A DNA stretch of 64,000 bases, taken from NCBI GenBank assembly GCA_018433865.1, contig JAHDQJ010000002.1, positions 124,001 through 188,000 on the forward strand, written 5' to 3'. Positions within the stretch are counted from its first letter, which is position 1. Each line of letters opens with the position of its first letter. Position numbers and translations under genes: made by a program. The stretch is from Spirochaetales bacterium. GTDB taxonomy: Bacteria > Spirochaetota > Spirochaetia > Sphaerochaetales > Sphaerochaetaceae. Below the pieces are notes generated by a model. The model made no database searches and was not told the origin of the DNA. It saw only the letters and a list, made by a program, of their open reading frames with translations. This document shows, one piece after another, positions 32,186 through 32,725 of this stretch.

Positions 32186-32680
32186 TTATGAGAAGGTATA
32201 AGAATACTTCTTGTTCGTACGTGCGCATTCGGCCAAATATTGGTTGATCAGATTCTGGTACGGAAGTCCCGTTTCCTCAGCCAATTGTCTGAACCAATCG
32301 ATAACCGCTTCATCTATACGAATCGTGATCTGCTTCTTCAGTTTCGGCAGGTAAGGATTCTCCCTCGCCGAACTGAAATCATACTCATCTCTCATGCCAT
32401 TACCCTCATGATACCAACGTGCTTCTTCTTTCGTCGCTTTTCTTGCCGAGATAATTCGGATGAGATCATCTTGTTCACGATAACAATGCACGACTACAAT
32501 CAGCCTTGGAGCTTGACTGAGACCAAGGATGACAAAGCGTTCTTCCTCTTGGGAGTGATCAGGATCATCAATGACACGTGCGTGCAGATCAAAAAAAACC
32601 GTCGATGCTTCGGAGAAGCTGACAGCACGTTTATTTTCGTTGACACGTGCTTTGATTTCGTCCCATGCAAATTTAAGCAT
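32186..32680 (-). CDS. brnT-brnA: BrnT toxin-BrnA antitoxin fused in one reading frame
   Basis: A single 164-residue frame contains a complete BrnT RNase-like toxin (1-95, LKFAWDEIK... RIISARKATKEEARWYHEG) followed directly by a complete BrnA antitoxin (96-164, MRDEYDFSSA ... KKQITIRIDEAVIDWFRQLA, a ribbon-helix-helix). In ordinary BrnTA pairs the toxin stops about here and the antitoxin has its own start. The junction reads CATGAGGGTAATGGCATG: one more G would give the usual end EG-stop, and GAGGG lies 7 nt before the BrnA ATG at 32395. The toxin's usual KHGVSF is KRAVSF, so the conserved His is Arg. Both whole fusion and free BrnA may be made. Confidence 0.85.
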   Translation of the reverse strand: MLKFAWDEIKARVNENKRAVSFSEASTVFFDLHARVIDDPDHSQEEERFVILGLSQAPRLIVVVHCYREQDDLIRIISARKATKEEARWYHEGNGMRDEYDFSSARENPYLPKLKKQITIRIDEAVIDWFRQLAEETGLPYQNLINQYLAECARTNKKYSYTFS

Positions 32681-32698
32681 AATTATATTACAATTATG
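32678..32698. promoter_or_regulatory. Candidate BrnA autoregulatory operator at the brnT start
   Basis: CATAATT at 32678-32684 and AATTATG at 32692-32698 form perfect 7-bp arms with a 7-nt spacer, overlapping the start codon and a TATAAT-like box. BrnA proteins repress their own promoter through palindromes, so this is the likely site. Confidence 0.5.
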
Positions 32699-32725
32699 TA
32701 TCCGGAAATTTCAAGCATGAAACGT

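What the first reader, a model, noticed from the sequence alone, without database searches (positions are those of the whole stretch)
32186..32680. BrnT toxin and BrnA antitoxin joined in one reading frame by an apparent one-base loss
The sequence shows a continuous 164-codon frame with a full BrnT followed by a full BrnA. At the junction (CATGAGGGTAATGG, minus strand) the GGG run at 32405-32403 is followed by TAA in another frame: with one more G the toxin would end ...HEG-stop, the usual BrnT end, and BrnA would start 7 nt after the stop. The antitoxin ATG keeps its GAGGG site. So this is either a natural fusion, a switch that varies with the G-run, or a sequencing slip. If real, a toxin covalently tied to its own inhibitor plus free inhibitor would behave unlike known BrnTA.
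Basis: partly seen in the sequence, partly recalled or inferred. Interest (0 to 1): 0.85.

Follow-up and report, generated by a model that had tools for sequence, protein, structure and literature searches.

The report
Old natural BrnT–BrnA fusion, toxin worn
A bacterial toxin gene and its antidote gene have merged into one gene; the merger is real and shared by sister species, such mergers are already known, and the toxin half looks disarmed, so this is most likely a tamed toxin–antidote system and not a sequencing error or a new mechanism.

Summary
In detail: 32186–32680 (−) is one open 164-codon frame with a BrnT domain (6–86) followed by a BrnA domain (96–151). It is not a sequencing slip. 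Both other species of the genus held carry the locus at the same chromosomal place (eno–GNAT–OMP–[brnTA]–rlmKL) with the same in-frame junction, so the fusion predates their split. BrnA keeps its own Shine–Dalgarno and ATG inside the frame, and a palindromic operator/promoter shared with two-gene relatives overlaps the toxin start.

The window has Arg at position 18, where 84 of 85 relatives have the His whose mutation abolishes toxicity in a studied relative. The sister HGW-Spirochaetae-4 has a stop at invariant Trp6. HGW-Spirochaetae-2 has lost about 58 N-terminal codons and has a repeat inserted in brnA. The toxin half evolves faster than the antitoxin half but was constrained for a long time.

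Best reading: an old, self-neutralised, autoregulated BrnTA fusion whose toxin is being disarmed or lost. BrnT–BrnA fusions are published (28 prokaryotic cases, PMC11980606), so it is a new member of a known kind. No expression or toxicity data exist.

The parts
32186..32680 (-). brnT-brnA fusion ORF, 164 aa
32396..32680 (-). BrnT (RelE/BECR-fold RNase toxin) half with C-terminal EGNG linker, residues 1-95; R18 replaces a near-invariant His (codon CGT, 32629-32627)
   Evidence: Pfam; conservation; AlphaFold/Foldseek match to 7vd7_A and 3u97
32186..32395 (-). BrnA (ribbon-helix-helix antitoxin) half, residues 96-164 plus stop; can also be started on its own
   Evidence: Pfam; alignment with 35 two-gene partners
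32403..32407 (-). GAGGG Shine-Dalgarno-like site 7 nt before the internal brnA ATG, kept as AGAGG in both sister species
32678..32698 (.). Near-palindrome CATAATTGTAATATAATTATG, the probable BrnA operator, ending in the brnT ATG; one mismatch to a motif found in the same place in two-gene relatives of several phyla
32685..32714 (-). Promoter-like TTGAAA-18-TAATAT; the second hexamer ends 4 nt before the brnT ATG, so a leaderless or almost leaderless transcript is predicted
   Evidence: consensus match, at the level of chance on its own; supported by conservation in relatives

Best explanation
This is a natural brnT-brnA gene fusion that arose once, before the three species held of this spirochaete genus split, by a small change (probably a one-base loss) that removed the toxin stop of an ordinary two-gene brnTA operon. 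The operon is read from a leaderless-type promoter that overlaps a palindromic operator bound by the BrnA RHH domain (inferred). Ribosomes starting at the toxin ATG make a 164-aa BrnT-BrnA chain, in which the antitoxin is always present one to one. Ribosomes starting at the retained internal GAGGG...ATG make free BrnA (inferred). The toxin is therefore held permanently neutralised. Its half has since come under weaker constraint: in the window species it carries an Arg in place of the His needed for toxicity in a studied relative, and in the two sister species it is truncated by a stop or deleted. The likely present role is an autorepressing antitoxin/regulator with a weak or dead toxin attached; a toxin that kills or arrests cells is less likely. 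Shown: the fusion, its ancestry, the lesions, the conserved sites. Inferred: the protein products, autorepression and loss of toxicity.
For: Fused frame with both Pfam domains. Same in-frame junction and same gene neighbourhood in HGW-Spirochaetae-4 and -2. Both halves of window and HGW-Spirochaetae-4 are sisters in trees (toxin 91/75, antitoxin 99/96). All 35 two-gene pairs extracted from relatives have a toxin stop near the brnA start, so two genes is the ancestral state. H18 is present in 84 of 85 relatives and is R here, while every other position at least 90% conserved is kept; H18A abolishes toxicity in Aave_1720 (PMC10714953). HGW-Spirochaetae-4 has TGA at W6 and K at E46. HGW-Spirochaetae-2 has lost its toxin N-terminus and has a dispersed repeat inside brnA. 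Toxin identity between window and sister is 56% against 74% for the antitoxin (difference -0.18; other pairs +0.02, sd 0.09), with terminal branches 0.78/0.82 against 0.26/0.14. Operator kept with 1 mismatch (window) and 0 to the palindrome read on either strand (sister).
Against: Purifying selection acted on the toxin half for much of the divergence: codon-position differences are 34/23/61 of 91, pN 0.32 against pS 0.87, and an unconstrained frame would be expected to hold about 3.7 stops per lineage. So the toxin half mattered for a long time after fusion. H18A in the relative lowered RNase activity only partly, and Arg could serve in a RelE-type active site. HGW-Spirochaetae-4 keeps H18. 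The toxin/antitoxin rate difference is only about 2 sd, and the pairs are not independent. HGW-Spirochaetae-4 and -2 are metagenome bins, so the TGA at W6 could itself be an error. Expression of free BrnA is untested.
Confidence: 0.66

Rival explanations
1. A working one-gene toxin-antitoxin system: the fusion is inhibited in cis and the toxin is switched on by proteolysis of the BrnA part or by a phage signal, in the manner of EzeT or CapRel.
For: Long-term purifying selection on the toxin half with no indel and no stop in the window; all near-invariant residues except H18 kept; operator kept; such one-chain systems exist (PMC4826407; PMC9712102 and PMC13423816 listed).
Against: The residue lost is one needed for toxicity in a relative; the toxin half is broken in both sister species; internal initiation would add free inhibitor.
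Confidence: 0.22
2. Assembly or sequencing slip: the true sequence is an ordinary two-gene brnTA.
For: Draft assembly of 55 contigs; the junction is one base away from the two-gene layout; 4-nt spacing as in relatives.
Against: The same in-frame junction is found independently in two other species with different nucleotide sequence around it (CGTAGAGGTAACGGAATG and CGTAGAGGTAACGGTATG) at the orthologous place.
Confidence: 0.02
3. Phase-variable or frameshift switch: slippage at the GGG run, in replication or on the ribosome, alternates between the fusion and a free toxin that ends at the relict TAA.
For: A -1 shift just before GGT AA would end the toxin at a TAA present in all three species, next to an SD-like sequence.
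Against: Only three G and no repeat tract; the run is not kept in the sisters; no stimulatory RNA structure (z +0.6); GGT AAY gives a TAA for free when Gly-Asn is kept.
Confidence: 0.04

Closest known systems
BrnT-BrnA fusion proteins (PF_BrnT mono-gene modules; PMC11980606, Table 2 and Fig. 5)
   Same: N-terminal BrnT domain joined in frame to a C-terminal RHH BrnA domain in one gene; 28 prokaryotic and 4 eukaryotic cases listed there
   Different: In the passages I read, that survey does not mention toxin-half lesions in sister species, an internal brnA start or an operator; whether this spirochaete is among its cases could not be checked (supplement not readable)
Canonical two-gene brnTA of Brucella abortus (Heaton et al. 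2012)
   Same: Gene order toxin-antitoxin, BECR-fold toxin, RHH antitoxin that binds its own promoter
   Different: Here there is no toxin stop codon, and Arg replaces a His that affects RNase activity/toxicity
EzeT and CapRel fused toxin-antitoxins (PMC4826407; PMC9712102)
   Same: Toxin and inhibitor in one chain
   Different: Unrelated toxin folds; those are active systems, whereas activity here is untested and doubtful

Membership tests
BrnT-BrnA fusion (mono-gene brnTA) | BrnT domain and BrnA/RHH domain in one uninterrupted frame | tested here: met
BrnT-BrnA fusion (mono-gene brnTA) | Fusion is genuine and inherited, not an artefact | tested here: met
   same junction and synteny in two sister species
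BrnT toxin family (PF04365) | Sequence and fold of BrnT | tested here: met
   88 bits against cut-off 34.5; Foldseek 7vd7_A E 4e-8, 3u97 E 2e-5
Active BrnT ribonuclease toxin | Residues needed for activity (K17, H18, F29, E86 in Aave_1720 numbering, which coincides with the window's) | tested here: not met
   K17, F29 and E86 kept; H18 is Arg in the window (PMC10714953)
Active BrnT ribonuclease toxin | RNase activity and toxicity | not testable with these tools
   needs an expression experiment
Type II toxin-antitoxin module (BrnTA) | Antitoxin separately made and binds the toxin | not testable with these tools
   internal SD and ATG kept, product not shown
Type II toxin-antitoxin module (BrnTA) | Autoregulatory operator at the toxin start | tested here: inconclusive
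   21-bp near-palindrome shared with two-gene relatives; binding not shown

The most novel reading that the evidence does not exclude
The fused gene is a maintained single-gene control unit. The tethered toxin domain, disarmed at the near-invariant His but otherwise conserved, acts as a built-in co-repressor for the RHH domain, while internal initiation supplies free BrnA, so that a toxin-antitoxin operon has been turned into a plain transcriptional regulator.
Probability: 0.15. Interest if true: 0.5.

Novelty: new member of a known kind. Interest (0 to 1): 0.3.

Why it matters
It gives a phylogenetically placed example of how a toxin–antitoxin operon can be tamed: fusion first, shared by the three species of a genus held here, then a different lesion of the toxin half in each. 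It also corrects the idea that this frame is a sequencing slip or an active self-poisoning device, and it suggests that published BrnT–BrnA fusions should be checked for the near-invariant His before being called toxins.

Tried and rejected
Sequencing slip: rejected by the sister genomes. G-run switch: no repeat tract, no RNA structure. Search for other fusions near this sequence: none among 393 phylum genomes; the 60 best plasmid records and both phage records give matches in two or more pieces, annotated (where annotated) as two genes. Five relatives have toxin and antitoxin in the same frame with one stop between them, so loss of a stop alone could also create fusions elsewhere. dS between window and sister is saturated, so no clean dN/dS ratio could be given. 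The Heaton 2012 paper was not held.

Full report
Observation. The minus strand 32680–32186 is a single open frame of 164 codons. Pfam finds BrnT_toxin at residues 6–86 (88 bits) and BrnA_antitoxin at 96–151 (37 bits). The junction is CAT GAG GGT AAT GGC ATG; the internal ATG (32395) has GAGGG 7 nt before it. Only the '7 nt after the stop' should read 4 nt.

Artefact test. All three species of the genus held in the genome collection have the locus. HGW-Spirochaetae-4 (G002) matches over residues 1–164 at 63% identity with no frame change, and HGW-Spirochaetae-2 (G001) keeps the part around the junction. The junction reads CGT AGA GGT AAC GGA ATG and CGT AGA GGT AAC GGT ATG, in frame in both. 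The flanks are the same: eno, an acetyltransferase-like gene, an outer-membrane-like protein gene, then the locus, then rlmKL (the gene names other than rlmKL rest on my reading of the translations). The window and G002 are sisters in both a toxin tree (91/75) and an antitoxin tree (99/96). The fusion is therefore old and inherited.

Ancestral state. Of 35 separate brnT–brnA pairs pulled from relatives, all have a toxin stop close to the brnA start; gaps of −4 and +4 nt are common, and GGAGG-like sites often precede brnA. Adding one base to the window junction gives the +4 layout, so a one-base loss is a plausible route. A gain of two bases would do as well.

State of the toxin half. In 85 relatives position 18 is His in 84 and Tyr in one; the window has Arg (CGT). 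All other positions conserved at 90% or more agree with the window. In the relative Aave_1720, H18A abolished toxicity and partly reduced RNase activity; K17, F29 and E86 also mattered (PMC10714953), and these three are kept here. In G002 the invariant W6 is TGA and the near-invariant E46 is Lys. In G001 about 58 N-terminal toxin codons are gone, a ~108-bp insert lies in brnA, and brnA is broken. So each species carries a different lesion of the toxin half. Yet the codon-position pattern between window and G002 (34/23/61 differences of 91) shows that the toxin half was constrained for a long time; an unconstrained frame would carry about 3.7 stops per lineage. The toxin half has diverged more than the antitoxin half (56% against 74% identity), about 2 sd from other pairs. 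I read this as a long period of function followed by relaxed constraint.

Control signals. Upstream of the toxin ATG lies CATAATTGTAATATAATTATG. The same 21-bp palindrome, with 0–4 mismatches and in the same register, lies over the brnT start of 13 of 23 two-gene relatives sampled, including Clostridia, and displaced upstream in several others. With the TTGACA-like box it predicts a transcript that starts at or near the ATG; brnT has no Shine–Dalgarno there, whereas brnA has one. This asymmetry would favour free BrnA (inference). In the window and G002 both signals are kept; G001 has lost the region upstream of the toxin remnant. A prediction by AlphaFold gives mean pLDDT 90 with a BrnT fold (matches 7vd7_A and 3u97) and a lower-confidence linker; the docking of the two halves was not measured.

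Known or new. A 2025 survey lists 28 prokaryotic and 4 eukaryotic BrnT–BrnA fusions (PMC11980606), so the kind is known. I could not read its supplement to see whether this lineage is included. What this case adds is the shared origin within a genus, the retained internal start and operator, and the repeated damage to the toxin half.

Verdict. Natural, inherited fusion: about 0.95. Toxin half weak or dead in the window species: about 0.65. Working one-gene system: about 0.22. Expression, binding and toxicity are untested.

Noticed in passing
window 32678-32698 and the same place in L006, L007, L012, L035, L036, L052, L056, L059, L066 and others: A 21-bp palindrome CATAATTATAATATAATTATG overlaps the brnT start codon in relatives from several phyla, with a -35-like box upstream; predicts a leaderless brnT transcript and a common BrnA operator.
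   Followed up: partly
L002 1441-2073 (G000 contig C47:133163-133795): The window's genome has a second BrnT gene (intact K-H motif, own stop) followed by a separate antitoxin-like ORF, as an ordinary two-gene pair.
   Followed up: partly
L040 5128-5235 (HGW-Spirochaetae-2): A ~108-bp insert breaks brnA; it is a dispersed repeat with 44 matches in G001 and 51 in G002, but none in the window's genome.
   Followed up: partly
L040 5543-7047 (HGW-Spirochaetae-2): A hipBA-like pair (HTH_3 and HipA domains) sits between the decayed brnTA and rlmKL, where the window has nothing: one toxin-antitoxin locus next to the remains of another.
   Followed up: partly
L045, L046, L047, L048, L069: Two-gene brnTA loci in which toxin and antitoxin share one frame with a single stop between them; loss of a stop or readthrough would fuse them.
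   Followed up: no
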